Assembly (NCBI GenBank): GCA_011526085.1
Contig: WYBC01000039.1
Span: forward strand, 124,001 to 188,000
DNA: 64,000 nucleotides
DNA from: Lysobacter sp.
GTDB lineage: Bacteria > Pseudomonadota > Gammaproteobacteria > Xanthomonadales > Xanthomonadaceae
Direction: 5' to 3'
The position numbers and the translations under genes were made by a program. This document shows, in pieces, positions 47,558-64,000 of the stretch (position 1 is the stretch's first letter; each line of letters starts with the position of its first letter). The notes below the pieces were generated by a model, which worked only from the letters and a program-made list of their open reading frames with translations, was not told the origin of the DNA and ran no database searches.

Positions 47558-49048
47558 ATGCGGCGATACAGGTCCGGTCCGGGGAACATCCGTCCGCTGG
47601 CGGCGCTGTCCGCTGCGCTGCTGCTGTCGGCCTGCGCGGGCCTGCAGCCCGCGCGCAATCCGCCCGCCGCGCCCGCGGCCGATCGCGCGGCGCAGTATCG
47701 GGTGCAGAACATGGCGCGCGGCGAGGGCAATTCCGACACGCTGCTGCTGAGCCTGACCTTCTCCGGCGGCGGCATGCGTTCGGCCGCGGCCTCGTATCAC
47801 CTGCTGGATGCGCTGCGGCGGCAGCCGGTGCGCATCGACGGCCGCGACACCACGCTGCTGCGGGAGGTCGATTTCATCTCCGCGATCTCCGGCGGCAGTT
47901 TCACCGCGGCCTACTACGCGCTGCATCGCGAGCGTTTTTTCGAGGACTATCCGGCGCGCGTGCTGCGGCGCGACCTGCAGGGCGAGGTGCTGGGCGCGGT
48001 GCTGCGGCCGCGGCGCGCGTGGGCGCTGTCGAGCCCGTTCTTCGGCCGTGGCGATCATCTGGCCGCCGTGCTCGACGACACGCTGTTCGCCGGGGCGACC
48101 TTCGCCGACATGCCGCGCGAGCGGCCGTTCGTGCGCATCGGCGCCACCGACATGCTCGACGGCCGCCGGGTGGAATTCACCCAGGAGAATTTCGACGATC
48201 TGTGCAGCGATCTCGCGCCGGTGCCGGTGGCGCGCGCGGTTGCCGCGTCGGCCGCGGTGCCCGGGATCTTCAGCCCGGTCAACGTGGCCGATTACAGCGA
48301 TACCGGCCAGTGTCCCGACAGCGTCGAGCCCCGGCGCTATCGTCATCTGATCGATGGCGGCGTGGCCGACAATCTCGGCATCACCGGGCCGCTGCAGGCG
48401 ATCGGCCGCTACAACGGGCTGGTGAACACGCTGCGCCGCTTCGGCTATCGCGGCATCCGCAGCTACGCGATCGTGGTGCTCAACGTCGAAAGCAATCCCT
48501 CCGATCCGCGGGACGGCGATCCGCGGGTGCCGGGCCTGTGGCGCACCGTCAACGCCGCGATCAACGGCAACATGCGCATGGATTCGGAAGAACTCGCGGC
48601 CACCCTGCGCCAGCGCATCGTGCAATGGCAGGACCAGATCGCGCGCGATCCGGACGCGGTGCGCAGCCGCGTGTTCGCGACCGCGCAGCCGCGCGTGTTC
48701 CTGATCGAGATCGGCTTCGACAAGGTCGCCGATCCGGTGTTGCGGCGGCGCCTGCAGTCGATGCCCACCGCGCTGCGGCTCGGTAAGGAGGACGAGGCCC
48801 TGATCGCGCGGTTCGTGCGCGATGCGCTGCGCGACTCGGTGGAATATCAGGCGATGTTGCGTGCGCTGGCGGAAGAGGACGCGGCGTTCGCGGCGCGTGG
48901 CGAGGTCGCGATGCCTGCGCCGTCCGTCGATGGCGACACGTCGCGACGCGCGCTGCGCCAGGCCTACGATGCCGCGGCGGCGTTGCCGGCGGAGGCGCCG
49001 GTGCCGGACGCCGGGGCCGCGCCGGGCGAGCCCGAACGCAGGCCCTGA
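47558..49048 (+). CDS. Patatin-like phospholipase lipoprotein
   Basis: Encodes 496 aa. The start at 47558 gives a lipoprotein signal (LAALSAALLLSAC, lipobox LSAC). The patatin domain shows the oxyanion hole LTFSGGGMRSAAASY, the Ser elbow in ISAISGGSFTAAY and the Asp of the dyad in LIDGGVADN. Probable lipid acyl hydrolase anchored in the envelope. The region after about residue 300 is helical. Its stop lies only 6 bp from the stop of the convergent 524-aa gene, leaving no room for separate terminators. Confidence 0.88.
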   Translation: MRRYRSGPGNIRPLAALSAALLLSACAGLQPARNPPAAPAADRAAQYRVQNMARGEGNSDTLLLSLTFSGGGMRSAAASYHLLDALRRQPVRIDGRDTTLLREVDFISAISGGSFTAAYYALHRERFFEDYPARVLRRDLQGEVLGAVLRPRRAWALSSPFFGRGDHLAAVLDDTLFAGATFADMPRERPFVRIGATDMLDGRRVEFTQENFDDLCSDLAPVPVARAVAASAAVPGIFSPVNVADYSDTGQCPDSVEPRRYRHLIDGGVADNLGITGPLQAIGRYNGLVNTLRRFGYRGIRSYAIVVLNVESNPSDPRDGDPRVPGLWRTVNAAINGNMRMDSEELAATLRQRIVQWQDQIARDPDAVRSRVFATAQPRVFLIEIGFDKVADPVLRRRLQSMPTALRLGKEDEALIARFVRDALRDSVEYQAMLRALAEEDAAFAARGEVAMPAPSVDGDTSRRALRQAYDAAAALPAEAPVPDAGAAPGEPERRP

Positions 49049-49054: not shown

Positions 49055-50629
49055 CTAGTCGCGCACCACCGGGGCGATGGCGTCGTATCGCAGGCCGCTG
49101 GCGACGCCGCCGCGTCCGGCGCTGCGGCGGATCCGCGCCCAGCTCGCGGTGCTGCCGTCGCTGCCGCGGGCGAGCACGTATTCGATGCGCAGGCGCACGC
49201 CTTCGCGGCCGACTTCCTCGTCGTGCACCCATTCGCCGGCCGGCAGCAGCCGGGCCAGGGCGTCGTCGCCCACGGCGCGGCGCAGCCGGCGGCCGGCGGC
49301 GTCGCTTTCCAGCACCAGCGGCGACCAGCCGGCGGGAACATCGGTGGCCAGCCGGTAGCGGTCATCGGCGGCGGTGTCCGCTTGCGGCGATGGCGTCGCC
49401 GGCGGCTCCGGCGCGCGGCGGCGACCGTCGGCACCGGTGACGGTCTGCGCGATGGCCCAGACCCGGTTCGCCATTTCGTCGCGGACGAGCACGGCCTCTT
49501 CGACCGCGTCGCCGACCAGCGGCGTCGCCAGCGCCGGCGGCAGGAACAACCACGGCTGCGGCACGCCCGCGGCGGCCGGCGCCCACAGCGCCCAGCCGCG
49601 GCCCGGCCCGGCCCCGGGACGGGTGGCCGGATCGAGCGCGATGGCGCCGAACACGTCGCCGAAGGTGTCGGAGACCGTCATCGAGACGATCCCGGACAGA
49701 CCGCCGGCCGGCACCGTCACCGGGGCGAGGAACATGTCGTTGCCGTAGACCATCGCCAACTGCAGCATCGCGGTGCGGCCGAGCTCCGCCGCCGGCGCGT
49801 CGACCGCGCCCAGATCGATGCTGGCGTCCTCGCATTCCCAGTAGCGCGCCTGCGGCATGCCGCGGAAGCGCAGGGCGGTGGGCGTGCAGCGATGGCTTCG
49901 CCGCTGCGGTGGCGTGCCGGACGGCGCGGCGTCGAGATCGCACGACAGCCAGCCGAGGCCGCCGCCGTGGTGGTCGACGATGCGCAGCGGCGTGCCGAGC
50001 CCGGCGCAGTGCAGTTCGGCTTCGTATTCCAGACGCTGCGGCCGCCAGGCCCCGACCGGGCCGTCGCCGGCCGGGCCGCCCAGCGTTTCGGCGATCAGCG
50101 CCTGCCAGACGGCCACGACCGGCGCGCTGTCGGGTGCGCCCAGCCGGTCGGGCAGGCGGCCGTCGACCGCGGCGTCGTACAGCGCCTGGCCGTCACCGGC
50201 GCGATGCGCCTGCACCGCGTCGCCGGCCGCGGCGGCGGCTTCGGCGGGCAGCGGGAATTCCCGGGCGACGCGGCCGGCGGCGTCGTCGAAGCCCTCGTCG
50301 TGGAGCATCCGCGCCAGCAGCGCGGCGGTCTCGGCGCGCTTGTGCGGGTTCCAGCCGCCCGGCGGGTCGGCCACCGCTTCGAGATGCGGTTCCAGCGGCG
50401 CGGCGCCGTCGATCGGGCGCTTGCCGTCGGGCCCGTACAGCGTCTCCAGCGGGTAGTGGGCCAAGGTGTAGTCCACGGTCACCGGCGTGCCGGCGTCCTC
50501 GCCGTCGAATTCGCCCAGCATCCACTGCCGGCCGAGCAGCCACAGCGGGTCCAGCAGGCGGGCGGCGAGGCCGGAACGCAAGTCCTCGGCGCGCTGCACC
50601 GGTTCGATCCGCAGGATCAGGTCGCTCAT
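49055..50629 (-). CDS. Conserved protein of unknown function (RQW-GEF-GEDAG motif)
   Basis: The last gene of the large right-hand operon, 524 aa. The N-terminus has the distinctive AARLLDPLWLLGRQWMLGEFDGEDAGTPV motif; I recall similar sequences in uncharacterised actinobacterial and cyanobacterial proteins but no function. Later strongly patterned parts are LRFRGMPQARYWECEDASIDLGAVD and MLQLAMVYGNDMFLAPVTVPAGGLSGIVSMTVSDTFGD. There is no signal peptide or transmembrane helix. The start overlaps the 1477-aa gene's stop (ATGA). The frame extends open far upstream only as an artefact of GC-rich codons. Role probably structural or partner to the upstream proteins. Confidence 0.75.
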   Translation of the reverse strand: MSDLILRIEPVQRAEDLRSGLAARLLDPLWLLGRQWMLGEFDGEDAGTPVTVDYTLAHYPLETLYGPDGKRPIDGAAPLEPHLEAVADPPGGWNPHKRAETAALLARMLHDEGFDDAAGRVAREFPLPAEAAAAAGDAVQAHRAGDGQALYDAAVDGRLPDRLGAPDSAPVVAVWQALIAETLGGPAGDGPVGAWRPQRLEYEAELHCAGLGTPLRIVDHHGGGLGWLSCDLDAAPSGTPPQRRSHRCTPTALRFRGMPQARYWECEDASIDLGAVDAPAAELGRTAMLQLAMVYGNDMFLAPVTVPAGGLSGIVSMTVSDTFGDVFGAIALDPATRPGAGPGRGWALWAPAAAGVPQPWLFLPPALATPLVGDAVEEAVLVRDEMANRVWAIAQTVTGADGRRRAPEPPATPSPQADTAADDRYRLATDVPAGWSPLVLESDAAGRRLRRAVGDDALARLLPAGEWVHDEEVGREGVRLRIEYVLARGSDGSTASWARIRRSAGRGGVASGLRYDAIAPVVRD

Positions 50630-53600
50630 GGCGCGGGGCCCTCCGATGCGAGCTGGCCGAAACTGGGCTGGTGGCGGCCGTCGTCGACCAGCGCCAGCGA
50701 CGCGAACTGGGCCAGGCCACCGAGCGCCTGCGGCTGCACGGTGCGCAGCTTCGCCAGTTCGAAGGCCTCGAGCACGTGCGCCAGCACCCCGGACTCGGAC
50801 CAGGTTTCCATGCCGGTCTCGGGCACGCACAGCAGGATCGCGTTGGGCGCCGCGGTCGACGGTGCGTCGACATGGAAGGCGATGGCGGCGTCGGTCTCGG
50901 CCGCCGGCACGAGTTCGCTCCACCGGTCCAGCAGCAGACCGCAGACCGGATCGCCCGCGTCCTGCAGCGCGCGGCCGTCGCGCCGCCGCCAGGCGACGAA
51001 CGCGGTGCGCCCGCGCGGCGGTGTGCCGGGGTCGCCGACCCAGCGGTCGCCGGCCTGGTACGGGGTCTGCGAGACCGCCAATCCGTGCAGGCCCGCGGTG
51101 TCTTCGCCGCGCTGGGTACGGGTTTCCAGCGCGGCCATCGCCGCCACCGCCGGTCGCACCCGCGCGGCGCGGGCCGCGAACGCGCGCAGCGCCGTGGCCG
51201 GCACGCCGAGCGCGCCGTGGAAGCGTTTGATCCAGTCGGGGTCGACGCCGGTGAAGCGCGGCAGCACCGGCTGCGCGTCGAACAGCGCGGCCAGCCGGTC
51301 GCGCGGCGGTCCGCCGGCGGTCGCCGCATCGATCCGTTGCTGCAGCGTGTCCCGGGTCTCCTGCCAGCCGGCCGTGGTGTCGGCGCCGACCGGCAGACCG
51401 AAGGCCCCGGCCCAGCGGCGCGCGCGCGGGCGCGCGTCGGGGTCGGTGCGGGCCGCGTCCAGCGCCTTCAGCGCGGCTTCGGCGGCCTTGCCGGTGGCGT
51501 CGAGGCGGGCGTCGAGATCGGCGGTGTCGACGACGACCGCGCCGGGCAGGTCGTCGGCCTGCAGCGCTCGCGCGTGACCCAGCAGCGCGCGCGCGGCCGC
51601 GGCCACGCCGGCGGCTTCGTCCAGCGCCGAGATCTCCGGGTCCCAGGCCGGATCGCGCGTCCAGTCGAAGCGTACGGCGGCATCGCCGGTCAGCCGTTCG
51701 CCCGCCGCGCGCAGGCGGTCTTCCAGCGGACCGCGTTCGATCCGCGCCGGTTCGGCGCCGGCGTAGGCCAGGTCCAGCGGACCCAGCGGCGGGTCGTCCT
51801 GCGGCAGCGCGTCGAGCAGTTCCTGCAGGCTGAAACGCTTGCCGGTGTCGCCGCCGTCGGCGTCGAGCAGGCGCACGAGAATGCGATCCGGCGCCGGCAG
51901 CAGGTGGGCGAGCCAGCTTTCGAGGTCCGGATCGGCGAGCCCACGCGGCGAACCGGCCGGCCAGCCCGCGCGTAGCGGCCGGTCGGGGTCGAGCGCCAGC
52001 AGCAGGCGATGGTTCACCGCGATGCCCCGCTCCGGCGGCTGCAGCACATCGAGATGGTCCGGCGGCGGGACCGCGCCGGAGAGGATGTCGGTGGCGCCGG
52101 CGGCGCGGTCGGGATTGCCGTTGGCGAGCTGGTACACGCTCTCGGCCAGCACCACGTCGGCGGTCGCGTCGATCGCGTCGCGGGCCTGCGCCAGCGCCTC
52201 GCGCAGCACGCGCTCCTGCACCGGGTCGAGGGCCCGTGGCTGCTGCAGCGCGCTGCCGAGCCGGCCGAGGTCGGGCGCTTCGGCCAGCTCGGCCGTGGCC
52301 AGGCGCACCAGCGCCAGTCCGTCGCACACCGCTTCGGCGGCGGTTTCCGGGAGCGCCGCGCCGCCCGGGCCGATCGGACGCGCGGCGGTGGAGGCGATCC
52401 CGCGCAGCCGTGCGATCAGCGCCGGCGCGGTGCCGCCGGCCTGGATCAGCGCGCGTTCGATGCGATAGCCCAGCAGCGCCGGCATCGCCTGGCCTTCGCG
52501 CAGGCCGTCGAGCAGCGCCCTGGCGGTGCGCGTGCGCCGCGAGGACAGCTCCACCGCGTAGTCGTCCGCGCGCGGGCCGCCGGGCGAGTCGATGCGGCGG
52601 GCGTGATCGGCCGACAGCAGCACGCCGGCGGCGATCGCATGCGGCACGCTGGGTGCGAGGACGTGGCCGGCGTTGCGCCCGGCGCGCGCGCGCGGGATCG
52701 CGCCGACCCAGCCGAAGGCGCCGACCTGCACGCCGCGCACGAAACCGTCCGGTCCCGTGCCCAGCAGGTTGTCGTTGCGCAGCAGCCGCAGGCGTTCGGC
52801 GGCGCGCGCGGTGTACAGCGCGTCGAGGCGATTGGCGTACAGCCCCAGCCCGGCGCCGAACAGCAGCTCCAGGCGGGCCTCGTCCACCGCCGCCAGCGCG
52901 CGCAGCGCGTCGTAGAGCAGGTGGGTGCCGCCGATCGGGGTGCGGCGGTCGGCCAGGATGTCGTCGAGCGACGCGTTCTGGCCCGGCATGACGTAGCGCG
53001 CCGGCGCCGGCATCGCGAGCCGGTCGGCCAGCCGATGCAAACGTCCGCCCGGCTCGAAATCGGCTTCGCCGGCCAGCCCCTCGGCCAGCAGGATCCGACG
53101 GGTGTCGTCGGCCGCGGCTTCCAGCAGCGCGATCCGTGCGACATGGAACAGCAGCGCGCGCGGGGTGGGGTCCGCGAGCACGTTCGCGAGCAGATCGTTC
53201 GGCGAGACCGTATCCGCCAGCCGCCGCAGATACTCCGACGGCCGTTCGCCGGGACCGGGTTCGGCCGGCGCCACCAGCGGCAGCGCGGCACCGGCTTCGG
53301 CCATCAGCACGCGCTCGGTGAGCGGCGGCTGCGCGGCGGGGTCGCCGCCGAGCTGCGCGTACAGGCTGCGCGCGGCCTCGCGCCGATCTTCGAGGCGCGT
53401 GCGCAGGGACGCGTCGGCGCTGGCGAAGACGTGCGCGGCGAGCGCATCGGACAGCAACAGGCGCAGATCGGCGGCCACCGCGACGCCTTCGGCCTGCAGC
53501 ACTTCGATCATGCGTTCGACCGGGTCGGGCGGGGTGTCGCCGGCGATGCGCGGCGTCTTCTCCACGGCCGACGCGAAGATCGTTTCGCGCAGCGCCGCGG

Positions 53601-55059
53601 CGCCCGCCCACAGCGCGTTCCAGTCCTCGTTGACATCGCGGTCGCGTCCCAGCGCCAGCGGCAGCACGCCGTAGGGCTGCGAACGCACCATCAGCGTCGG
53701 CAGCGGCCCGAGCGCGCTGCCGTTCGCCAGCAGGTCCAGGCCGAACGCGACCGGCATCGGCAGGGCCTTGCCGAAGGCCGCCTGCAGCCCGGATTCGAAC
53801 GCCGTGCGCAGCACGTTCGACAGCGTGCGCTCGGTCTGCAGGGTGTCGTCGGCGGCGCCGTCCAGCCAGCCGAAGGCCGTCGGCGAGAGGCCGAGCGCTT
53901 CGGCGAGCGTCACCGCCGGGGCGAAGCGGTCGTAGCGCTCGACGTCCCGGCGCAGTACCGGATCGAACACCGTGGTCAGGTAATGCGGCGGGCGCAGCGG
54001 CCGCGGGTCCTCGGCGGGGTCGAGCGGGCTGCGCACTGCGAACGCCAGCGCGCGCTCGTACAGCGTCGCCGGGTCCGGCTGCAGACTGAAACGGGTGCGT
54101 TCGCCGGGCAGGGCATTGGTCGCGCTGCCCGGCGGCGGCAGCGACAGGCCGCCGGTCGCGTGCTGACCCCGCAGATGCGCGTCCCAGGCGTCGGCCGTGG
54201 TCGCGGAGTCGTCGCTCGCGCGCACGCCCAGCACCACCAGCCGCGATACCCGCGCGCGGGTATCGGGCAGCTTCACCCGCAGCGCCATGCCGGCGGCCTC
54301 GGCCGCGGCGAAATCGACCATCCACAGGCTGTCGGCATCCAGCGAACCGTCGCCGGCGGCGCCGGCCTGCGCGGGGTCCGGCCCCAGCGCCAGCATTTCG
54401 CGCACCGGTTTTTCAGCTTCCGCGCGCAGTGTCGTGCCGTAGCCGTCGTCCAGCCAGGCATGGGCGACGAAGCGCTCCGGCAGCAACGCGGCGCGCGGCG
54501 CGCGGGCATAGCCCGGCGGCCGCGACGGCACGCCGTCCAGGTTGCGCTGCGCCGCGAGCCACAGCCCGCGCACGCTGCCGACGTCGCGCGCGAGCTGCAG
54601 CCAGGCGTCGCGCATCGGCGGGATGTCGAAACTCGTTTCGACCACCTTGCGGAACCGCATCCAGGCCGCGCGCTCGACATCGCTGACCCCGGGGTCGTGG
54701 GCGTCGGTGTGGATTTCGTCCGGATAGATGCGTACCAGCAGCGCGTCGTCGAGATAGCGCGTTTCCAGCCGCACCGGCAGCAGCGCCAGCGGCAGCCGCC
54801 GATCCAGCGCGTACACGCCGATGGCGTCGCCGACGCGCGCGCTTTCCCGCAGCAGGGCCTCGCGGTCCGCTTCGATCTTCATGCGCAGCGTGTCGCGTCC
54901 CGCCACGAGTCGCGCTTCGTCGTCGCGCATCGCCGCGGCATCGCCGTCGCCGCGCGCGCGGGCGGCGCGCAGCTCGCCGAGCTTGGCTTCGACGGCGGCG
55001 AGCTTGGTGCGCTGTCGCGCGATGCTGGCCTGCAGGGTGCGTTGGGTGGCGGTGGGCAT
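50626..55059 (-). CDS. Giant protein of unknown function (1477 aa)
   Basis: No domain I can name. The first 75 residues form a likely coiled coil (SIARQRTKLAAVEAKLGELRAAR, then EARLVAGRDTLRMKIEADREALLRE). A conserved-looking stretch follows (LALLPVRLETRY, LLVRIYPDEIHTDAHDPGVSDVE, residues about 91-130). Near residue 460 is LMVRSQPYGVLPLALGRD, a motif remembered from other uncharacterised large proteins. The middle part is Ala-rich and helical; the last part has CVPETGMETWSESGV and ALVDDGRH. There is no signal peptide, membrane helix or clear enzyme motif, so it is probably cytoplasmic. Gaps or overlaps to neighbours are 24 bp and 4 bp. Confidence 0.7.
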   Translation of the reverse strand: MPTATQRTLQASIARQRTKLAAVEAKLGELRAARARGDGDAAAMRDDEARLVAGRDTLRMKIEADREALLRESARVGDAIGVYALDRRLPLALLPVRLETRYLDDALLVRIYPDEIHTDAHDPGVSDVERAAWMRFRKVVETSFDIPPMRDAWLQLARDVGSVRGLWLAAQRNLDGVPSRPPGYARAPRAALLPERFVAHAWLDDGYGTTLRAEAEKPVREMLALGPDPAQAGAAGDGSLDADSLWMVDFAAAEAAGMALRVKLPDTRARVSRLVVLGVRASDDSATTADAWDAHLRGQHATGGLSLPPPGSATNALPGERTRFSLQPDPATLYERALAFAVRSPLDPAEDPRPLRPPHYLTTVFDPVLRRDVERYDRFAPAVTLAEALGLSPTAFGWLDGAADDTLQTERTLSNVLRTAFESGLQAAFGKALPMPVAFGLDLLANGSALGPLPTLMVRSQPYGVLPLALGRDRDVNEDWNALWAGAAALRETIFASAVEKTPRIAGDTPPDPVERMIEVLQAEGVAVAADLRLLLSDALAAHVFASADASLRTRLEDRREAARSLYAQLGGDPAAQPPLTERVLMAEAGAALPLVAPAEPGPGERPSEYLRRLADTVSPNDLLANVLADPTPRALLFHVARIALLEAAADDTRRILLAEGLAGEADFEPGGRLHRLADRLAMPAPARYVMPGQNASLDDILADRRTPIGGTHLLYDALRALAAVDEARLELLFGAGLGLYANRLDALYTARAAERLRLLRNDNLLGTGPDGFVRGVQVGAFGWVGAIPRARAGRNAGHVLAPSVPHAIAAGVLLSADHARRIDSPGGPRADDYAVELSSRRTRTARALLDGLREGQAMPALLGYRIERALIQAGGTAPALIARLRGIASTAARPIGPGGAALPETAAEAVCDGLALVRLATAELAEAPDLGRLGSALQQPRALDPVQERVLREALAQARDAIDATADVVLAESVYQLANGNPDRAAGATDILSGAVPPPDHLDVLQPPERGIAVNHRLLLALDPDRPLRAGWPAGSPRGLADPDLESWLAHLLPAPDRILVRLLDADGGDTGKRFSLQELLDALPQDDPPLGPLDLAYAGAEPARIERGPLEDRLRAAGERLTGDAAVRFDWTRDPAWDPEISALDEAAGVAAAARALLGHARALQADDLPGAVVVDTADLDARLDATGKAAEAALKALDAARTDPDARPRARRWAGAFGLPVGADTTAGWQETRDTLQQRIDAATAGGPPRDRLAALFDAQPVLPRFTGVDPDWIKRFHGALGVPATALRAFAARAARVRPAVAAMAALETRTQRGEDTAGLHGLAVSQTPYQAGDRWVGDPGTPPRGRTAFVAWRRRDGRALQDAGDPVCGLLLDRWSELVPAAETDAAIAFHVDAPSTAAPNAILLCVPETGMETWSESGVLAHVLEAFELAKLRTVQPQALGGLAQFASLALVDDGRHQPSFGQLASEGPAP

Positions 55060-55083
55060 GGAAAGTCCGTCGGATCGACCCGG

Positions 55084-57762
55084 TCAGGGCCGGCCGAGAA
55101 GGGTGGCGGCGTGGATGTAGACGCGCTGCTGCGGGCGCAGCGCGGTTTCGGCGAAGCGGTCGGAGCTGCCGTCGCCGGTGACCTGTTGGCCGGATGGCGT
55201 ATTGCCGGCAGGTCCGAAGCGCAGATCCACCGGTGGCTCCTGGAACACCAGATACCAGCCGGGCCCGTGTCCGCCGCCGCCGATCGCCTCCTCCGCGGTC
55301 AGGTCGAAGCCGAAGCAGGCGATGTTGCCGGGCAGGCGCAGGTCCACCAGCGGGTAGAGCGTGGACTGCGCGCCGCCCAGGTCGGGCAGCGGCGCCGGCG
55401 GCACGGTCGTCGAGGCCTTCTGCAGGAAGATCGCGGCGCGGTCGAAGCGCTGCAACAGCGTGCCGCGCACCGCCACCACCATCCGCGGCGTGGCCCCGGA
55501 CAGGCCGTGCCCGCCCAATGGGCCGGCCCAGGTGTCCAGCCCGGGCCATTCGGCGCGCGCGTCCGACCAGAAGCGGTCGAACACCGTGCCGCGCTGGTCG
55601 GTGGGGAAGCCCCGCCACAGCATCTCGCGGCCGATCTCTTCGTTGAGGCCGGCCATGTAGCTCTCGATGAAGGCCGGATTGGCGTCGATCAGCGCGATGT
55701 ACTGCTCCGGCGCGCCGCGCGCCTGCAGCGCCGGCGCCATCCACGCGCGGTCTAGCGCCAGCAGCGGGCGCAGCATCGGCCACGGCAGTGTCGGCGCCAG
55801 CAGGATCGGGTCGAGCGTGTCGGCGGTCGGGGTGGCCAGCGCCGGCGAACGGGGATCGGTGCCGATGCGGGCGCGGGTGCGGCGGGCGATGGTGAAGGCG
55901 GGATCGGCCGCCGCGCGCAGTCCTTCGAACAGCGCCTCGCGGTCGCCGCCGCCGGCGTGGCCCAGCGGCCGGCAGCCGCCGGCGCGCGGTTTGGCCCAGC
56001 GGGCGGCCAGTGCCCGTGCGGCCTCCAGCGAGGCCGGCGCCGTGGTCGCGGTCGTCGTCGTCGTGCGCCCGGGGAGACGCGGCCCGATGCGCGGGTCGAT
56101 CAGCACCGGCCTGTTGATTCGCGGATCGAGCACGCCGGGATCGATCCGGAACCGGTCGCCCGGCAGTCGCCGGCCCGGGAAGCCCAAGCTTCCCAGCTCC
56201 GCGGCGCTGAGCGTGGTCGCCTCCGGTGCGGCGGGTGTCGGCCGTCGCCCACCGCCGTCGGCCAGCCGCAGCAGCAGAGCGGCGCCCTGCGGCTGGTCGT
56301 CGTGCCGGCGGCGCAGCCGGCGCAGGATCGGGCCGTTCGGCCGCATCAGTTTCCGGAACGCGCCGCTAGTGGCCAGCCGCGGCAGGCAGCTGCGGACCAG
56401 CTCGGTGGCCGCGGTCAGCCCGCGCGGCGCCAGCGGCAGATGGCCCAGCATCGGCGCCAGCCACAGCAGCGCGCCGAGGTCGTCGCCGTCGCGGCCGCGC
56501 TGCAGGTCCGGCGCCAGCCGGCGCAGGAACAGGGCGGTCGCGGCCGCGCGCGCGCTCTGGCCGATGCGCAGCAGCTGGTTGGCGCGGTCGATCTCGCCGG
56601 CCTGCTCCCAGATCGCCGCCATCATCTCTTCCTGATGCCGGCGCACCACTTCGGCGCCCAGCCCGGCGGCGACCCGGCGCACCGGATCGAGGTTCAGCGT
56701 GCGCACCCAGGCCGGCGCCCCGGTGCCCGTAGGCACGGGGGCGCGGGCGTGGCGGCCGCCGTAGACCGGCGGCGCCAGCGGCGAGGGGTCGGCCAGCCGT
56801 GCGGCGAGGTGGCCGACCAGCGCGGCCGGCGGCGTCGAGCGGCTGGTCGGCCCCATGGCCGCATCCATGCCCAGGACCGCGTCGGCGAAAACCGGGCCGT
56901 CCCCGCCCTCGGGCGTGCCGGCGTCGAGCGACCGTCCCGGGGCCGAGCTCGGGTCGTAGGCCTCCAGTTGCGCCACCAGATCGGCGAAGCGGTCGGCGGC
57001 GCCGGTGCTGAAGCGCCAGTGGTCGTACACCGGCAGGTCCACCGCCTGGCCGACGGTCCATGCCGGGCCCAGCAGCGCCGGATCGTCGAGGTCGAGGGTT
57101 TCGCCCAGCCCGGCCAGCCGACCGCCCAGGAAGGTCGGGACCAGGCAGGCCAGATACTCGGTGTTTTCCCGCAGCGCCATCGGGCACAGCAGCCGCGACC
57201 GGAACCGCCGCGGCGTCTCCCGTGCACCGGCGATCACCGCGTCGCGCCCGGCGCCCGGCGCGGCGTCGCCTTCCTGCACGTGCGCCCATTCCGCGGCCCG
57301 GGCCGGATCCGGCAGCCGTGCGCTCGCGCTCGGGTCCAGGCGCACCAGCGCGCCGTGCGGACCGGGCAGGATTTCGGCGCCGGTCGCCGGCACCGCCACC
57401 AGGCACAGCCAGGGCGGCAGGGTGTCGTCGCGGCCCGGCGCGTAGGGCGTGAACAGCCAGGGCAGATCGGGGCGCTGGAATTCGATCGACGCGAACTGCG
57501 TCGGCGACACCGCGGTGGCGTCGGGCGCCGGCACCCGCGCCAAGATCTGATCGGCGGCCAGTCCCACCGCATCGGCCGGGCCCAGCACCGCGAGCGTCGC
57601 GCCCGGCGCGTTCCAGACAGCGGTGCCGCCGTCCTCGCCGGTGGTCGTCATCCGCAGCGACGTGTCCACCGTCGCGCGGATGCGCGCCTGCGGCGCGCCC
57701 GCGGCCTGCGAGATCGCTGCCGCCACCGCCGGGCGGGCATAACGGATGAAGCGCAGGCTCAT
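55084..57762 (-). CDS. Large protein of unknown function (892 aa)
   Basis: No recognised domain. The N-terminal half contains LPWLFTPYAPGRDDTLPPWLCLVAV and ALRENTEYLACLVPTFLGGRLAGLG, which look like conserved structural motifs. A low-complexity linker with GRTTTTTATTAP lies in the middle (about 620-640). The C-terminal third has ANPAFIESYMAGLNEEIGREMLWRGFPTDQRGTVFDRFW, a strongly patterned motif I recall from other operons of this kind, and ends with GPGWYLVFQEPPVDLRFGP. No export signal. The ATG overlaps the DUF6603-type gene's stop by four bases. Function unknown; probably a partner of the neighbouring proteins. Confidence 0.72.
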   Translation of the reverse strand: MSLRFIRYARPAVAAAISQAAGAPQARIRATVDTSLRMTTTGEDGGTAVWNAPGATLAVLGPADAVGLAADQILARVPAPDATAVSPTQFASIEFQRPDLPWLFTPYAPGRDDTLPPWLCLVAVPATGAEILPGPHGALVRLDPSASARLPDPARAAEWAHVQEGDAAPGAGRDAVIAGARETPRRFRSRLLCPMALRENTEYLACLVPTFLGGRLAGLGETLDLDDPALLGPAWTVGQAVDLPVYDHWRFSTGAADRFADLVAQLEAYDPSSAPGRSLDAGTPEGGDGPVFADAVLGMDAAMGPTSRSTPPAALVGHLAARLADPSPLAPPVYGGRHARAPVPTGTGAPAWVRTLNLDPVRRVAAGLGAEVVRRHQEEMMAAIWEQAGEIDRANQLLRIGQSARAAATALFLRRLAPDLQRGRDGDDLGALLWLAPMLGHLPLAPRGLTAATELVRSCLPRLATSGAFRKLMRPNGPILRRLRRRHDDQPQGAALLLRLADGGGRRPTPAAPEATTLSAAELGSLGFPGRRLPGDRFRIDPGVLDPRINRPVLIDPRIGPRLPGRTTTTTATTAPASLEAARALAARWAKPRAGGCRPLGHAGGGDREALFEGLRAAADPAFTIARRTRARIGTDPRSPALATPTADTLDPILLAPTLPWPMLRPLLALDRAWMAPALQARGAPEQYIALIDANPAFIESYMAGLNEEIGREMLWRGFPTDQRGTVFDRFWSDARAEWPGLDTWAGPLGGHGLSGATPRMVVAVRGTLLQRFDRAAIFLQKASTTVPPAPLPDLGGAQSTLYPLVDLRLPGNIACFGFDLTAEEAIGGGGHGPGWYLVFQEPPVDLRFGPAGNTPSGQQVTGDGSSDRFAETALRPQQRVYIHAATLLGRP

Positions 57763-60700
57763 GGGTCCACCACCACGATGGCTTCGTGCGCCGGCACCAG
57801 CACCTGGGCGCCGCCGGCGCCGCGGCGCCGCGCGTCGGTCAGCACCGCATGCGCGGCTTCGCCGCCGGGGAAGGTCTGCAGGGTGTCGGGTTCGGCCAGC
57901 ACGTAGCGCTCCGGCCGTACCGCGATCGCGGCGATGCCGGCATCGCCGAACCGCCGCGTGTCCGCCTGCATGAAGCCCAGGCCGGGGCGGGTCGACGACG
58001 CCTGTGCGGCGGTGCCGTCCGGATTCATCACCGTCTCCTCGAAACGACCGGTCACCGGCGCGCGCAGCGTCGGCGGCAGCCACAGCCCCGCCGGCGTGGC
58101 CTCGAGGCCCGCGGGCAGGCTTTCGAACGCCGGCCGCGTCAGCTTCTCGTCGTCGCTCAGCGGCTCGAACTCGCCCGGGGCGAAGTCGTCCTCCACCGGT
58201 CGTGCCGCGACCGCGCCGCCGCCCAGGGCCAGACCGTCGATCGCGAAAGCGCCCGGGTCGGACACCAGGGCGGTGCCGAACTTGCGCAGCACCTTGCCCA
58301 GCGGCAGCAGGCGCTGGCGGAAGCCCAGCCCGCCCAGCGGATGCACCAGCACCGTGCCCGGCAGCGGTTCCACGCGCCGCAGCGAAACCACCGCCTCGGC
58401 GTCGGCCCGCGGCAGTGCGGCCCAGTTCTCCGCGCGCAGGATCTCCGCCGCCAGCTGTCGCCGCAGCGCGTCGCGGAACAGGCCGGCGGGCGGCGTCTCC
58501 GCGGCGGGTTCGCCCAGCACGGCCTCGAACGGGATTCGCAGCGGCACGATGATCTGCACCTCGACGAAGCCGTTGATCCGCCACGGCTCCGGCCCGGTGA
58601 GCGAGGCTTCCAGCCGCGCCGCGAACAACACCGTGCCGTCGCGCTTGATCGCGATGCCGGCGCGCAGGTCGGCCGCGAAGAACGGCGGATCGAAGATCAG
58701 CAGCACGTCGAACTGCGCGTAGGCTTCGACGCTGAAGACGCCCAGCGCGGTTTCCACCGCCAGCCGGAAATCGGCGCCGGCGCCGAACTGCACCGCGTTG
58801 GAGGTCAGCGCGAAATACGAGGTCAGGGTGAACGTCGGGTTCTCGCCCGACGACAGCGCGATCCCCATCCGCGCCGGCGCGTGGAAATCCGGCGGCGGCA
58901 GGAAACGCGGATTGAAACCGCCCACCGACAGCGCGAAGGCCTTGGTCGCGCCCCAGGAAATCAGCATCGCCATGCCGCCGGTCACCGCGAACGCGGCGAT
59001 CCGCGAATCCACCAGGCGCGCTTCGATGGTGAGCCTGCCGCGGCCGAGATCGATCAGGCCCAGCACCTCCAGGCGCAGGTCGACCACCGGATCGTCCTTG
59101 CTCGGCAGCGCCATGCGCATCCGCCCGAGGATCGCGATCACGATCGGCGACGGCAGCGAGATCAGCACCGCCACGTCCATTTCCAGCAGCGCGTTCGCGC
59201 CCCAGCCGATCTTCACCATCGGCCCGAACACGTGGCGGTCGCGCTGCGGCGGGAACACCCGGCCGATGTCGTCGACGATCCGGCGCACGTTGGCGACCAC
59301 GTCGCGCGGGAACAGGATCGAACCCAGCCGGCCCTCGCGCAGGCACTGCGCCAGCGCGTCCTGGTCCATGTTGCGATGGATGCCCGCCAGCCCGCCGATG
59401 CCGATCAGGCTGAAGCCGAACCCCAGCTGGATCGGCGGAAACTCCGCGGTGATGATCAGCAGCATGCTGAAACCGTCGCCGCCGTCCGGCAGCCGCGTGG
59501 TCACCACGCCCACCGCGTTGAACGACAGCGCCTTCATCGACAACTGCACCGCGCCGGCGTACAGCGGCGTCTCCGGATCGAAGAACAAATAGCCGCCGCC
59601 CGAGACCGGGCCGGCGTCGATGCTGAGACCGACGCCGTTCGGCGGTTTGAAGCCGATCCCCAGTTGCGCCGGGCCGGCATTGCCGCCGCCGGGGGGGAAC
59701 GAGGCCTGGACCCGCAATCCCATGCGTTCGACCGTCGCGGCGATCGGTCCGATGACGACCCCTCCGGTCAGCGACACCTCCGCCGCCAGCGCGGGCGCGC
59801 CGCCATCGGATTTCGCGGACAGCTGCAGCCAGAGGCTCTCGATGACGATGACGCCGGCGAGACTGCGCTGGATGTTGAAACGCGCGCTGAGGCCCGCGTT
59901 TCCGCGGAACGACAGTCCCGCGGTGTTGGACCACGACAGGCCGAAGTCGAATCGCGTCGCGATGGCGTTCGGCGGCAGGATATTGGACAGGAAGCCGTCG
60001 CCGTCGCCCGCCGAGAAGATCAGGCCCGCCTGCGCGACGTCCAGATCGAAACCGAAGTCGCGCGTCGTCGGTGTCAGCGCCATGGATCCGGTGAGCGAGA
60101 GAGATCCGATCTCGAATCGGGTGCCGGTCGCGCTGCCCAGGCGCAATGGTGCGCCCGATCGGCCCAGGCGCAGACTCCCGTCGAAGCGGCTCGCGGCCGT
60201 GGACGGCAATTCCGTGCCGGTGGCGCGGAACACCAGGGCTTCCGTGGCGGCCTGGACATCGATCGTGCCGGTCCAGCCGGATGCGGAAGCGAGCGTGAAA
60301 GACGTGCCTCCGAACGGCGCCACCGACAGACCCGCCGGTCGCGACTGTTCCGGACCCGCCACGGCGAGGATCGCACCCAGCACGCCGGTGGCGCTCGCCG
60401 ATCCTGACGCGATCTCCGGCAGCGCCCATTCCAGCTTGAGCATCTGCGCGATGGCCAGCTCGTCTTCCGCCGTCAGCCGGCGCAGCGCCCCCGGCCCGCG
60501 TCCCAGCATGGCCCGGCCTCCCAGCGCCTGGGCCACGACGGCCAGCAGGGGAAAGACGCGCAGTGCGTATGCGGTGGCGGTCGAATCGTCGATCACCGAC
60601 GCCATGCCGAACTGCCGACGCGCCTGCTCTGCGGGACGCGCGATCCATTCGGACAGATTCTGCAATTGCAGGCGGTCGACGAAGATCGGCTCCCGGAGCG

Positions 60701-61178
60701 TACGCGACTGGTTGCTCTCCACGCGCAGCGCGCGCTGCGTCTCGATGATTCCCGTCGCGCGGAACAACGCGTCCAGGATCGGGCAACGCAGCGCCAGCCA
60801 ATCGAGCAACAGGACTTCCAGGATGTCCGCAGGAATCTGCGCCACCGCCTGAGCGGCCGTCGCCGGAGCGATCCCGGCCACGGTCGTGGCGATCCGCTCC
60901 AGGGCGCGGGGAACGTTTCCGGCGGAACGCAGGGCGGTCTCGAACGCGGCGAAATCCGGATTGCCGCCTTCCGCGATGCTGCGGATCGCGTCGATCGCGG
61001 CGCGTATGTCGGCGATCGCGCCGGCGAGCACGCTCACGTCGGGCAGGCTTTCCGCGAGCGTCCAGCCGGTCCGGCGCAGCAAGGCGAACAACCGGTCGGG
61101 GTTCTGGCCCGCATCCAGCAACGGCGCGAACATCGTTTCCAGTTCGCCCAGTACCGCCGTCAACGAGTCGTTCTGCAT
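57759..61178 (-). CDS. DUF6603-type giant beta-rich protein
   Basis: Encodes 1139 aa. The central region has the pattern I associate with DUF6603: FPPIQLGFGFSLIGIGGLAGIHR, ALAQCLREGRLGSILFPRD, RVFPPQRDRHVFGPMVKIGWG and LLEMDVAVLISLPSPIVIAILGRMRM. Residues from about 300 to 850 are long runs of alternating polar and nonpolar residues separated by Gly turns, as in extended beta sheets. The N-terminal 250 residues are helical. There is no signal peptide. The start at 61178 (MQNDSLTAVLGELE) lies 13 bp after the preceding stop; its ribosome-binding site is weak, so translation is probably coupled. No function is known to me for the family. Confidence 0.78.
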   Translation of the reverse strand: MQNDSLTAVLGELETMFAPLLDAGQNPDRLFALLRRTGWTLAESLPDVSVLAGAIADIRAAIDAIRSIAEGGNPDFAAFETALRSAGNVPRALERIATTVAGIAPATAAQAVAQIPADILEVLLLDWLALRCPILDALFRATGIIETQRALRVESNQSRTLREPIFVDRLQLQNLSEWIARPAEQARRQFGMASVIDDSTATAYALRVFPLLAVVAQALGGRAMLGRGPGALRRLTAEDELAIAQMLKLEWALPEIASGSASATGVLGAILAVAGPEQSRPAGLSVAPFGGTSFTLASASGWTGTIDVQAATEALVFRATGTELPSTAASRFDGSLRLGRSGAPLRLGSATGTRFEIGSLSLTGSMALTPTTRDFGFDLDVAQAGLIFSAGDGDGFLSNILPPNAIATRFDFGLSWSNTAGLSFRGNAGLSARFNIQRSLAGVIVIESLWLQLSAKSDGGAPALAAEVSLTGGVVIGPIAATVERMGLRVQASFPPGGGNAGPAQLGIGFKPPNGVGLSIDAGPVSGGGYLFFDPETPLYAGAVQLSMKALSFNAVGVVTTRLPDGGDGFSMLLIITAEFPPIQLGFGFSLIGIGGLAGIHRNMDQDALAQCLREGRLGSILFPRDVVANVRRIVDDIGRVFPPQRDRHVFGPMVKIGWGANALLEMDVAVLISLPSPIVIAILGRMRMALPSKDDPVVDLRLEVLGLIDLGRGRLTIEARLVDSRIAAFAVTGGMAMLISWGATKAFALSVGGFNPRFLPPPDFHAPARMGIALSSGENPTFTLTSYFALTSNAVQFGAGADFRLAVETALGVFSVEAYAQFDVLLIFDPPFFAADLRAGIAIKRDGTVLFAARLEASLTGPEPWRINGFVEVQIIVPLRIPFEAVLGEPAAETPPAGLFRDALRRQLAAEILRAENWAALPRADAEAVVSLRRVEPLPGTVLVHPLGGLGFRQRLLPLGKVLRKFGTALVSDPGAFAIDGLALGGGAVAARPVEDDFAPGEFEPLSDDEKLTRPAFESLPAGLEATPAGLWLPPTLRAPVTGRFEETVMNPDGTAAQASSTRPGLGFMQADTRRFGDAGIAAIAVRPERYVLAEPDTLQTFPGGEAAHAVLTDARRRGAGGAQVLVPAHEAIVVVDP

Positions 61179-61191
61179 GTTCGTGGCCGGG

Positions 61192-64000
61192 TCACTGTGG
61201 GTGGCGCGGGTGGAACCAGCCCATCGCCGCCCGCGACCAGGACACCCGGTGCTGTGCGGACCGCGTCGGTGCGGCCTGCCCGCCAAGCGAGACGATGAGG
61301 TTCGCCAGCTTCGCCGGAAAACTGTCCCAGGTGCGGTGCAGATCGGCCCAGCCCAGTTCGGGAAGTTCGATGGCGCCGGCGCTGCGATGCGCGCCGACCG
61401 TGAAGATCAACCACTGATCCGGGTTCGAGGCGGTCTGCATGCCGAACACACCGCGATTGCCGGCCAGCCCGATGCCTGTGCCGGAGCGCTCGGCGGACAG
61501 CACGAATCCGCTGTCGAGGACTTCGCAGGCGACCAGAGGCACCGGCGAGTCGATCGGCGTGCCGGAGAGCGATGCCCGCCGCAACACGTGCAGCATCAGG
61601 CGGCAGCCGATGGCATCCGCCGGGGTACCTTCCCAGCGCACCGAATCGGAGGCCGGAACGCAGGAAAAGCCCCCCAGTTCGGCATCAAACAGGACATCCT
61701 GCTGCAGCATCGCGCGACGGAGCGACGACATGAACTCCTGCAACCGGACGGTTCGCGATGCGGTTTCGCCGGGAAGACGGGTCGGGGCCGTCGTGACTTT
61801 GACGCCATAACAATCCAGACGGACCCACCCGGTCCCGCTTTCCACACCGGGCAGATCCAGTCCCATCGTCGGGTCCGGCTTGAACGAAAGGATGTCCATC
61901 CAGATCGACAGATCCTGCACCGCGTCGAGGACCGAATGGCCGGGCTCGGGCTCGTCGATGCCGGGAGACGCCAGCGGCAGGAGATGGGTCGTGACCGGAT
62001 AGCGCGTGCCGTCGATGCGCTCGAGGTCGTGTCGGACCCGCAGTTGACCACTCGAACCGAGAATGCGCACCCGACCGATGTTGCTTTGGCCGACGACGAG
62101 CCGATGCTGGGTCGAAGGCCCGCAGGTGATCAGTTCTTCCTTCAATCGCTGGCGCCTTTGAGCGCTGGTTTCCAGGCCGAACGCCACCGGTTCCGGGAGA
62201 CCCTGATCCGGGGAGAGGTCGGAACAGAAACGCACGCGATAACTCCACTCGGCAGGAGGCAGGCCGGTCGTCTCGACCGCCCCCTGGATCTTGATCACGG
62301 CCGGTCGGGTTTCCGGTTGGCGCAGCTTCGAGTCCCGGGGAACCCGGGGAATGATGGAGTCCCAGCCCAGATAATCGGTCTCGCCCGGCGGAGCGAGCGC
62401 GGGAGCGATCGCGGCGACCACGTCCGGTCCGACCTGCACGCCCACTTCGAGCAGTGTCCCCGCCGTCATGATCCACAGCTGCGCCTTGAGCAGAGGCCCC
62501 TGCAGTGCCAGCGGGGCGATGATCTGCAGTCGACCGCTGGTGACGAGCGTTTCCGCCAGGCGCCTCCGCGTGGAGGCCGTCGCATCGTTCAGGATGCGTG
62601 CCAGCAGCGGGCGGAATTCCCGTGACCCGAGGCTGCCGACGACCGACGTCTCGACCGACTCGTTTTTCAGCGCACTGGAGCACAACTGCACCATCGCTGC
62701 CCGGGTGTCCGAACCCTGGCGGCGATTCCAGTACCACGCGGCGGCCGAAAATCCGTAGTGCACATCGCCCGACAGGATCACCACCCGTCCCAGCCGACTC
62801 AGCTCCGCCAGCAACTGCTCGAACGCCGCCGGTGCGCCCGCCTGGCGCCAGGCTTCGTTGTCCAGGACGCTGCGCATGTGGCCTTTCGTGCCGATCTTCG
62901 GCAGTTCGCCCTCGTCGGGAATCTTCTCGAGGATGCCTTCGACGAGCTCCTCCACGAAGGGATGCCCGAATACCGGGGCCGGCGACACCACGAGCGTCAC
63001 TTCCGGAGCGGGAACGGCGGTGCGTGCCCGGATCTGCCGCACGAGATCGGACGCCTCGATCAGATCGGTCTGACCCGGTGCGGTCAGGTTGCGGTGCGTC
63101 CGGGTATCGAGGACGATCGCCTGCCAATCGCAACGCGCATCGGGCCTGAAAGCGTAATCCCACAGCATGCCCGTCGCATTGGACTGGGGAACGACCCGCA
63201 GCGCGCGCCGCAGTCCGTCATGATCGGATTGACCCGCGCGATACGTGTCGCCGTCGAGATTCCCGATCGCCGACAGGTGGGTCAGGAGATTGCCGCCGTC
63301 CGAGCCGGAAGCGAAGCTTTCGTGATCGTTCCCCCAGGCCTGGAACACCGCATAGGCCGCCAGCGCATTGCCGATCACCCGTTGTCCGATGCCTTCCGGC
63401 GCAGTGAGGACTTCCGTTTGCCACGCGGCGTTCAGATACCAGTCGTCGGTGACCTCATGGTCGTCGAACATCATGTAGCTGGGGATGTTCGCCAGCACCC
63501 GTCGCACTCTTTCCAGTCCGTCGCGGAATTCCATCGCCGTGCGCATCTGGTCCGCCCAATCCGTCTTGGCGAGATAGTCGCGGATCGCCGCGATGTCCTG
63601 ATCTTCGCCGCTGCCGTCCGGGTCGGCGGCGGCGAGCGCTGCGGCAGGCACGACCTTGTCGGCCGTGGGCAGGGCGAGCGGCCACAGCGCAGGCGACCAT
63701 GCCATCAGGTACATGGCATAGAACTCACCGAGCCCGAGCAGGTGACAGTGTCCTTTTTCGGAGGTCATGTCGCCGCGCAGGATGAAGCGACTCCGGCTGC
63801 CCGGCGGCAAACCGGTCAACAGGCTCGGGCCGCCCGCATCGGGCATTTTTTCCTGCCAGCCCAAGAGTTTGGACGCGAGTTCCGTGAGTATCGGCAGCAA
63901 GGGGCCGGCCACATCGTCGGCGTAGATCTGGTCGCCGGTCAGGAACAGCATCTGCGGCCGACGATCGACCCGGTCTCGATCCATGTCGATGTCGCGATCC
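61192..64000 (-). CDS. PhoD-like metallophosphatase with long C-terminal extension (5' end outside window)
   Basis: The reading frame is open to the right edge, so the N-terminus is missing; about 936 codons are seen. The visible part begins within a metallophosphatase: LFLTGDQIYADD (63950-63915), MMFDDHEVTDDW near 63440-63475, and ILSGDVHYGF near 62750-62780 are the Asp/His metal ligands of the PhoD/calcineurin-like group. Expected activity is hydrolysis of phosphodiesters or phosphomonoesters, substrate unknown. The roughly 520 residues after the catalytic domain are of no known family (for example HRLVVGQSNIGRVRILG, and GFVLSAERSGTGIGLAGNRGVFGMQ). First visible gene of the right-hand operon, 13 bp before the DUF6603-type gene. 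Confidence 0.82.
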   Translation of the reverse strand, partial: DRDIDMDRDRVDRRPQMLFLTGDQIYADDVAGPLLPILTELASKLLGWQEKMPDAGGPSLLTGLPPGSRSRFILRGDMTSEKGHCHLLGLGEFYAMYLMAWSPALWPLALPTADKVVPAAALAAADPDGSGEDQDIAAIRDYLAKTDWADQMRTAMEFRDGLERVRRVLANIPSYMMFDDHEVTDDWYLNAAWQTEVLTAPEGIGQRVIGNALAAYAVFQAWGNDHESFASGSDGGNLLTHLSAIGNLDGDTYRAGQSDHDGLRRALRVVPQSNATGMLWDYAFRPDARCDWQAIVLDTRTHRNLTAPGQTDLIEASDLVRQIRARTAVPAPEVTLVVSPAPVFGHPFVEELVEGILEKIPDEGELPKIGTKGHMRSVLDNEAWRQAGAPAAFEQLLAELSRLGRVVILSGDVHYGFSAAAWYWNRRQGSDTRAAMVQLCSSALKNESVETSVVGSLGSREFRPLLARILNDATASTRRRLAETLVTSGRLQIIAPLALQGPLLKAQLWIMTAGTLLEVGVQVGPDVVAAIAPALAPPGETDYLGWDSIIPRVPRDSKLRQPETRPAVIKIQGAVETTGLPPAEWSYRVRFCSDLSPDQGLPEPVAFGLETSAQRRQRLKEELITCGPSTQHRLVVGQSNIGRVRILGSSGQLRVRHDLERIDGTRYPVTTHLLPLASPGIDEPEPGHSVLDAVQDLSIWMDILSFKPDPTMGLDLPGVESGTGWVRLDCYGVKVTTAPTRLPGETASRTVRLQEFMSSLRRAMLQQDVLFDAELGGFSCVPASDSVRWEGTPADAIGCRLMLHVLRRASLSGTPIDSPVPLVACEVLDSGFVLSAERSGTGIGLAGNRGVFGMQTASNPDQWLIFTVGAHRSAGAIELPELGWADLHRTWDSFPAKLANLIVSLGGQAAPTRSAQHRVSWSRAAMGWFHPRHPQ

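What the first reader, a model, noticed from the sequence alone, without database searches (positions are those of the whole stretch)
49055..64000. Five-gene operon of giant proteins around a DUF6603-type protein and a PhoD-like phosphatase: candidate undescribed system
Five minus-strand genes fill 15 kb with 4-nt overlaps (57762/57759 and 50629/50626) or gaps of only 13 and 24 nt. All encode very large proteins (524, 1477, 892, 1139 and more than 936 aa) without obvious export signals in the four complete ones, and three show no domain I know. Only the phosphatase suggests chemistry. Translational coupling of several giant proteins is typical of multi-protein machines with fixed stoichiometry. 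Some motifs (GRQWMLGEFDGEDAG, LWRGFPTDQRGT, SQPYGVLPL) seem conserved across phyla from memory, which would suggest a mobile, modular system.
Basis: partly seen in the sequence, partly recalled or inferred. Interest (0 to 1): 0.85.

Follow-up and report, generated by a model that had tools for sequence, protein, structure and literature searches.

The report
Undescribed enzyme-carrying giant-protein operon
Very distant bacteria and salt-loving archaea share the same row of four giant genes of unknown kind, often headed by one enzyme gene that is swapped from species to species, which looks like an undescribed molecular machine with an exchangeable enzyme payload.

Summary
The five-gene operon is real and closes 500 nt beyond the window: PhoD-like E, DUF6603 protein A, then B, C, D. 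A-B-C-D is a conserved module: in 80 loci, C is found in 76 of 76 with room, B in 63 of 63; A is in 45 of 45 genomes tested. Loci span many bacterial phyla and haloarchaea. B, C, D have no match over cut-off in Pfam, NCBIfam, PADLOC, PHROGs or solved structures; no held paper names DUF6603. The gene before A varies: of 51 A genes, 28 have an adjacent enzyme and 2 carry one in frame. Unlike proteases share a C-terminal domain found, in 46 genomes, only at this operon. A's model is a beta-meander with one oily face; D's matches no solved fold. In one Chitinophaga an eCIS (contractile injection) cluster follows 845 nt after D. Best reading: a carrier complex with a swappable enzyme. Module, swapping and pairing are shown; assembly, export and target are inferred. 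A divergent DUF6603 operon also exists.

The parts
61192..64000 (-). E: PhoD-like metallophosphoesterase, the variable 'payload' gene (complete gene runs to the equivalent of 64500, 1102 aa)
   Evidence: Pfam PhoD 6e-9; full ORF in L002; motifs kept
63916..63936 (-). E motif GDQIYAD (aa 189-195)
   Evidence: all seven residues invariant in 11 aligned E proteins
63439..63465 (-). E motif DDHEVTDDW (aa 346-354)
   Evidence: DDH and TDDW invariant in 11 aligned E proteins
62758..62769 (-). E motif GDVH (aa 578-581)
   Evidence: G, D and H invariant in 11 aligned E proteins
57759..61178 (-). A: DUF6603 protein, 1139 aa
   Evidence: Pfam PF20248 1e-118; AlphaFold2 model pLDDT 77, pTM 0.53
60444..61178 (-). 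A N-terminal, mostly helical part (aa 1-245), proposed docking site for the enzyme
   Evidence: model; profile hits in 34 of 54 A rows; in 31 of 37 with a first gene and 3 of 12 without
58149..59855 (-). DUF6603 domain (aa 442-1010): amphipathic beta-meander
55084..57762 (-). B: 892 aa, new family
   Evidence: no Pfam, NCBIfam, PADLOC, PHROGs or PDB-sequence relative; present in 63 of 63 D loci with room
50626..55059 (-). C: 1477 aa, new family
   Evidence: as B; present in 76 of 76 D loci with room; one ORF with D in 13 of 80
49055..50629 (-). D: 524 aa, new family with an unmatched predicted fold
   Evidence: AlphaFold2 pLDDT 81, pTM 0.78; no PDB match at E <= 0.001
50483..50551 (-). D signature DPLWLLGRQWMLGEFDGEDAGTP (aa 27-49): among the most conserved parts, yet mostly low pLDDT when modelled alone, so a candidate partner-binding segment

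Best explanation
The operon encodes a multi-protein carrier (A-B-C-D), made in the cytoplasm without classic signal sequences, together with one exchangeable enzyme from its first gene (here a PhoD-like phosphoesterase). The enzyme docks on the DUF6603 protein beside which it is encoded, through that protein's N-terminal part and, in some proteases, through a shared C-terminal domain. The amphipathic beta-meander of DUF6603 gives an oily surface for lipid, membrane or partner proteins. B, C and D (C and D sometimes one protein) form the rest of the particle. The whole is released and lets the enzyme act outside, most likely on other organisms' envelopes or proteins. Shown: conserved module and order, swapped enzymes, gene pairing, shared domain, amphipathic strand pattern (in a model), C-D fusion. 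Inferred: physical assembly, docking, release and target.
For: Order A-B-C-D on one strand in 50 of 52 loci that show all four. Of 51 A genes with readable upstream DNA, from 43 genomes, window included, 28 have an adjacent enzyme gene and 2 more (L102, L103) carry an alpha/beta-hydrolase domain in the same open frame. In two Nitrospira genomes each of two tandem A genes has its own enzyme: PLD, then subtilase. A C-terminal domain of about 125 aa is shared by subtilase and trypsin-like proteins; a search of 46 operon genomes found it 6 times: 5 in the gene directly before a DUF6603 gene, 1 in the gene before that (4 of the 6 are the profile's own rows). A's N-terminal part goes with having a first gene: 31 of 37 against 3 of 12, Fisher p 3e-4, not corrected for relatedness. 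Strand faces of A differ in hydropathy by 2.63 against 1.39 (sd 0.18) in shuffles, none of 1000 as high. C and D are one ORF in 13 of 80 loci. An eCIS cluster directly follows the operon in one Chitinophaga.
Against: No export route, particle or target was shown. No immunity-type gene was seen to travel with the operon: no flanking ORF cluster recurred in more than 7 loci, and the commonest looked like a response regulator by eye. 12 of 51 A genes have no evident first gene, and a group with short A proteins has WD40, M23, ferritin-like or nothing there. Four first genes are not recognised enzymes by name (2 WD40, 1 ferritin-like, 1 DUF2515) and 5 are unassigned. For extra A copies in a genome I did not check that B-C-D follow. 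The shared domain is in only 5 of 46 genomes, and the PhoD family shows no similarity to it. The trypsin-like calls are below Pfam's cut-offs. Some A proteins reach hydropathy values that could mean membrane segments.
Confidence: 0.4

Rival explanations
1. A-D are accessory or cargo proteins of extracellular contractile injection systems (eCIS): the enzyme is the payload and A-D load, cap or aim it.
For: In Chitinophaga ginsengisoli a Pvc16-sheath-tube-tube-CIS_tube-spike-PAAR cluster starts 845 nt after D on the same strand. CIS genes lie about 34 kb upstream of the operon in Catalimonadaceae JC749 and about 22 kb downstream of D in Citricoccus. Three sheath loci within 40 kb against 0.57 expected, p 0.02, distance chosen afterwards. 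Sheath matches in 29 of 46 operon genomes; in an Actinomycetota sample, centre left out, 4 of 9 DUF6603 genomes against 27 of 286 others, p 0.009.
Against: 17 of 46 operon genomes have no sheath match (some are MAGs), and in 26 of the 29 with one it is not within 40 kb on the same contig. The window's genome has only a sub-cut-off match on another contig. Genome size is not controlled, sheath profiles also hit prophages, and I did not check that the 9 DUF6603 genomes hold B-C-D.
Confidence: 0.2
2. A conflict or anti-phage system: A-D sense infection and hold in check an enzyme that attacks the producing cell's own molecules.
For: Swapped effector-like enzymes (PLD, proteases, deaminase) and patchy spread.
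Against: No PADLOC match for any of the five proteins; no NTPase, TIR or nuclease family in the window's core proteins; M23, M64 and glycosidase-like enzymes suit outside substrates (established knowledge).
Confidence: 0.12
3. A released degradative complex for nutrient scavenging (for example phosphate from phosphodiesters), built on a scaffold as a cellulosome is.
For: Most recognised enzymes are hydrolases; FG-GAP, Kelch and lamin-tail repeats in some B and D.
Against: One enzyme per A, not many; no dockerin or cohesin match in the proteins scanned; no classic signal sequence seen in the five window proteins.
Confidence: 0.12
4. An intracellular lipid-handling machine: DUF6603 is a lipid-binding beta-groove or belt and the first gene trims the lipid or cargo.
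For: Amphipathic strand pattern; weak Foldseek matches to outer-membrane barrels and ApoB100; PhoD, PLD and alpha/beta-hydrolase partners.
Against: TM-scores only 0.11-0.16 in the 16 matches at E <= 0.001; many partners are proteases or peptidoglycan-type enzymes.
Confidence: 0.1

Closest known systems
DUF6603 (Pfam PF20248)
   Same: A is a clear member, E 1e-118
   Different: Function unknown; no paper in the held library names it. The operon with B, C, D and a swapped enzyme is not part of that family's definition.
PhoD-like phosphatases (Pfam PF09423)
   Same: E matches over the cut-off and keeps the aligned motifs
   Different: No classic signal peptide seen in E by eye, long extra C-terminal part, and one option in a variable first-gene slot
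Extracellular contractile injection systems (eCIS)
   Same: Multi-gene cluster with diverse enzyme payloads (recalled); adjacent to the operon in one Chitinophaga
   Different: No sheath, tube or baseplate match in A-E
Polymorphic toxin systems and Tc toxin complexes (recalled)
   Same: Large constant parts with an exchangeable enzymatic part
   Different: The exchange is of a whole upstream gene; no immunity candidate found; no Pfam match to RHS or other toxin-carrier families in A-D
Divergent DUF6603 operon A'-B'-X-C' of Pseudomonadota (found here)
   Same: DUF6603 followed by a protein whose N-terminal part is homologous to B's (hhalign 97.9%, E 6e-13)
   Different: C' shows no similarity to C or D; D absent from those genomes

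Membership tests
DUF6603 family | profile match over the curated cut-off | tested here: met
   397.5 bits against 27
PhoD-like phosphatase | profile match over cut-off and conserved metal-site motifs | tested here: met
   35.9 bits against 27; motifs aligned with 10 relatives; that these are the metal ligands is recalled
PhoD-like phosphatase | phosphoesterase activity | not testable with these tools
   needs an assay
eCIS / contractile injection system | sheath, tube and baseplate proteins in the cluster | tested here: not met
   no such match in A-E; the window's genome has only a sub-cut-off sheath match on another contig
Type VI secretion system | TssC/VipB sheath in the genome | tested here: not met
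   VipB not found in the window's genome; found in 6 of 46 operon genomes
Known anti-phage systems (PADLOC-DB 2.0.0) | match to a system protein model | tested here: not met
   0 families for all five at E <= 0.01
Phage structural proteins | PHROG match or occurrence in phage genomes | tested here: not met
   0 PHROGs at E <= 0.01; for D one 40-residue match in IMG/VR and one unverified 76% GC scaffold in the phage set
Polymorphic toxin system | exchangeable enzyme plus adjacent immunity gene | tested here: inconclusive
   exchangeable enzyme seen; no recurring immunity candidate in flanks
Bridge-like lipid transfer (repeating beta-groove) proteins | long hydrophobic groove of repeated beta-sheets | tested here: inconclusive

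The most novel reading that the evidence does not exclude
A categorically new class of protein-delivery particle, found in many bacterial phyla and haloarchaea: a carrier of giant proteins without a contractile sheath, in which each DUF6603 beta-carrier holds one enzyme from a genetically swappable slot, with a docking code that could in principle accept other cargo.
Probability: 0.3. Interest if true: 0.93.

Novelty: categorically new. Interest (0 to 1): 0.8.

Why it matters
Three giant protein families without any described relative in the searches made, conserved in order across bacteria and archaea and paired with an exchangeable enzyme, point to an overlooked molecular machine. 430 D-type stretches in a collection of 84,980 species genomes (a lower bound, since two short peptide patterns were used) mean it is sparse but widespread. 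If it delivers or displays enzymes it adds a kind of system beside eCIS, T6SS and Tc complexes, and its docking rules would be of practical use. DUF6603 would gain a testable role as enzyme partner and amphipathic beta-carrier.

Tried and rejected
Phage origin: not supported. Known defence system: no PADLOC hit. T6SS dependence: VipB in only 6 of 46. Operon extending further right: rejected. A fixed phosphatase function: rejected, since PhoD is one of several first genes. Conserved downstream partner: none found. Shared domain in PhoD proteins: not detected. C or D related to C' of the divergent operon: not detected; D related to B: not detected. A mixed C+D alignment (A7) misaligned D rows and was not used. 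Literature: 'DUF6603', 'PF20248' (114) and Bd3614 with deaminase (115) gave 0 papers; for eCIS toxins (134) and a mixed-term search (135) I saw listings; passages were searched in PMC12419801 and PMC8213781, where the terms looked for did not lead to this operon. Subscription papers and preprints were not searchable.

Full report
OBSERVATION. Overlaps of 4 nt (A/B, C/D) and gaps of 24 nt (C/B) and 13 nt (A/E) were read directly or follow from the ORF ends. The genome holding the window (G000, contig C35, 279,373 bases) continues to the right; E is 1102 aa and its start codon lies 500 nt beyond the window. Next come an Hsp90 and other genes that do not look related. On the left D faces a convergent patatin-like gene. 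So this is a closed five-gene operon: E (PhoD-like), A (DUF6603), B, C, D. Signal sequences were judged by eye only. B, C, D and the partial E show low maximal hydropathy; A reaches 2.04 in its strand region, and 18 of 62 A proteins exceed 1.8, so membrane contact of A is not excluded.

FAMILIES. Pfam finds DUF6603 in A and PhoD in E and nothing in B, C, D. NCBIfam has one match far below its cut-off (D, E 0.015); PADLOC and PHROGs have none. Profiles of A (38 rows), B (55), C (60) and D (69) find no credible relative among solved-structure sequences (best E 0.036, for D).

CONSERVATION. A scan of the collection of 84,980 species genomes with a five-row D alignment matched 540 stretches, 430 of which encode a relative; the best 80 were kept and read. 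In the nine misses the fetched flank ends at or just before B's start. For seven of the nine, DUF6603 was then found in the same genome; L057 and L058 were not tested. I gave 45 of the 80 loci; DUF6603 was found in 45 of 45 genomes. Where all four families are seen, 50 of 52 loci have order A-B-C-D on one strand; L061 and L090 are rearranged. C and D are one ORF in 13 of 80. The D tree has 13 phylum-level groups, among them Actinomycetota, Pseudomonadota, Nitrospirota, Acidobacteriota, Bacteroidota, Verrucomicrobiota, Bacillota and Cyanobacteriota; record titles add a Polyangium, a Caldilineaceae MAG and a haloarchaeon. Of four plasmid loci read, all carry the order A-B-C-D: two Streptomyces, one Rhizobium (B and C each split in two) and one haloarchaeon; by the session's E profile E is at the head in S. 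longwoodensis and Salinigranum. The tree of 86 D proteins needs 24 phylum changes where 12 is the minimum (shuffled mean 44), so transfer between phyla is likely, although the labels are clustered. DUF6603 is rare: 6 of 59 relatives of the window's genome, 9 of 397 Pseudomonadota, 10 of 296 Actinomycetota, centre genomes included. D was found in 3 of the 8 window-genus genomes searched, window included. One further genus member (G007) has A, B and C pieces at only about 29-36% identity on a short contig.

THE VARIABLE FIRST GENE. Upstream stretches were fetched for 40 A genes and 12 more places. After dropping two duplicates (second A of L149 and L150), one cut gene (L160) and one stretch without A (L152), 50 A genes remain, 51 with the window, from 43 genomes. 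For extra A copies in a genome I did not check that B-C-D follow. Tally: PhoD-like 13 by the session profile (10, 2, and the window; Pfam does not call L155 and scores L154 below its cut-off); subtilase 4 (L150 by likeness to L149); trypsin-like 2 (below Pfam cut-off, or by similarity); PLD 3 (L111 by likeness to L113); M23 2; M64 1; beta-lactamase-like 1; Rv2525c glycosidase-like 1; Bd3614-type deaminase 1; alpha/beta-hydrolase in the same open frame as A 2 (Micromonospora L102, Polyangium L103; true start codons unknown). That is 30 of 51 with an enzyme. Others: WD40 2, ferritin-like 1 (182 nt from the A frame), DUF2515 1, unassigned 5 (two look like a calpain-type protease and a lysozyme by eye only, no Pfam match), none evident 12. 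In two Nitrospira genomes two A genes stand in tandem, the first preceded by a PLD gene and the second by a subtilase gene, so enzyme and A go in pairs there.

A SHARED DOCKING-LIKE DOMAIN. About 100 residues near the C-terminus of a subtilase (L112) match those of trypsin-like proteins (L117 E 5e-9, L118 E 3e-7); a fourth copy lies in the gene before the first gene of L118. A four-row profile (A8) searched through 46 whole genomes with the operon found 6 matches in 5 genomes: five in the gene directly before a DUF6603 gene, one in the gene before that. Four of the six are the profile's own rows, so the new information is the two Nitrospira matches and the lack of any other copy at E <= 0.001. 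The PhoD family does not share it. The first ~245 residues of A are mostly helical in the model, and their profile hits 34 of 54 A rows. After dropping three cut or duplicate rows and setting aside the two fused ones, it is present in 31 of 37 A genes with a first gene and 3 of 12 without (Fisher p 3e-4). A clade effect is likely part of this, since the short-A group overlaps the C-D-fusion group.

STRUCTURES. A (34-row alignment): mean pLDDT 77, pTM 0.53, pLDDT above 85 in most of DUF6603. I took 33 strands of the model (mean 12.6 residues, shortest ones left out): their faces differ strongly in hydropathy (2.63 against 1.39, sd 0.18, in within-strand shuffles). The 16 Foldseek hits at E <= 0.001 are outer-membrane proteins (SlpA, LptD, ushers, siderophore receptors) and ApoB100, with query TM-scores of 0.11-0.16, so they share strand character and not a fold. 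Outer-membrane location is unlikely, because the family is common in Gram-positive bacteria and occurs in archaea (inference). D (65-row alignment): pLDDT 81, pTM 0.78, no PDB match at E <= 0.001. Its conserved N-terminal signature is modelled with low confidence, as expected of a segment that folds on a partner (inference). B and C were not modelled.

A DIVERGENT SISTER OPERON. The DUF6603 loci of eight other Pseudomonadota genomes lack D but hold a different giant-gene operon: A' (ORFs of 1453-3390 aa), B', a ~300-345-aa protein in 6 of 8, and C' (ORFs of 1234-1766 aa; starts uncertain). B' matches B's N-terminal part (hhalign 97.9%, E 6e-13); C' does not match C or D. The A-B pair may therefore be the ancestral core (inference).

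LINK TO CONTRACTILE INJECTION SYSTEMS. Sheath profile PF04984 hits 29 of 46 operon genomes, 25 over the cut-off. In Chitinophaga ginsengisoli a Pvc16_N gene starts 845 nt after D, followed on the same strand by sheath, two tubes, CIS_tube, spike and PAAR. CIS genes lie about 34 kb upstream in Catalimonadaceae JC749 and about 22 kb downstream of D in Citricoccus. The three cases within 40 kb exceed the 0.57 expected (p 0.02, threshold chosen after seeing the data); in Actinomycetota the co-occurrence is 4 of 9 against 27 of 286, centre left out (p 0.009; genome size not controlled and operon type of the nine not checked). This is a lead. 17 of 46 genomes show no sheath, and the window's own genome has only a weak match elsewhere.

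READING. The best-supported explanation is a carrier complex with one swappable enzyme. Module, order, swapping, pairing and (in a model) amphipathic strands are shown; assembly, docking, release and target are inferred. Against it stand the absence of any demonstrated route out of the cell, the lack of an immunity partner, and the sizeable minority of operons without an enzyme. Novelty is rated categorically new because no family, fold or paper found here describes B, C, D or their combination; it would drop to a new variant if A-D prove to be eCIS accessories.

Noticed in passing
L016 10492-17540 (same-genus genome G003): B and C homologues are split over several reading frames while A and D are open: decayed genes or sequencing errors. 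Described only, nothing mended.
   Followed up: partly
L161-L168: A divergent DUF6603 operon (A'-B'-X-C') of giant proteins in Pseudomonadota; its X and C' proteins had no Pfam match in the one locus scanned (L165).
   Followed up: partly
L084 12495-21585: eCIS cluster (Pvc16, sheath, tubes, spike, PAAR) begins 845 nt after the operon in Chitinophaga ginsengisoli.
   Followed up: partly
L056, L077, L085, L094 and L020: An extra gene of about 270-340 aa, coiled-coil-looking by eye, between B and C in Nitrospira-type operons and in the same-genus genome G007.
   Followed up: no
L022 and L011/L026 D proteins; L009 and L092 B proteins: D with C-terminal Kelch repeats or lamin-tail domains, B with FG-GAP repeats: accessory adhesive-type modules.
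   Followed up: partly
window 606-8435: A 2609-aa RHS-repeat protein (Pfam RHS_repeat, DUF6531) on the minus strand.
   Followed up: no
window 47498-49048: Patatin-like phospholipase gene converging on D, plus strand.
   Followed up: no
window 35701-41427: TamA/TamB-type pair (Omp85 with POTRA domains, then TamB).
   Followed up: no
L155 2199-6812: PhoD-like first gene in which Pfam does not call PhoD and the usual motifs look degenerate by eye: possibly an inactive enzyme kept in the slot.
   Followed up: no
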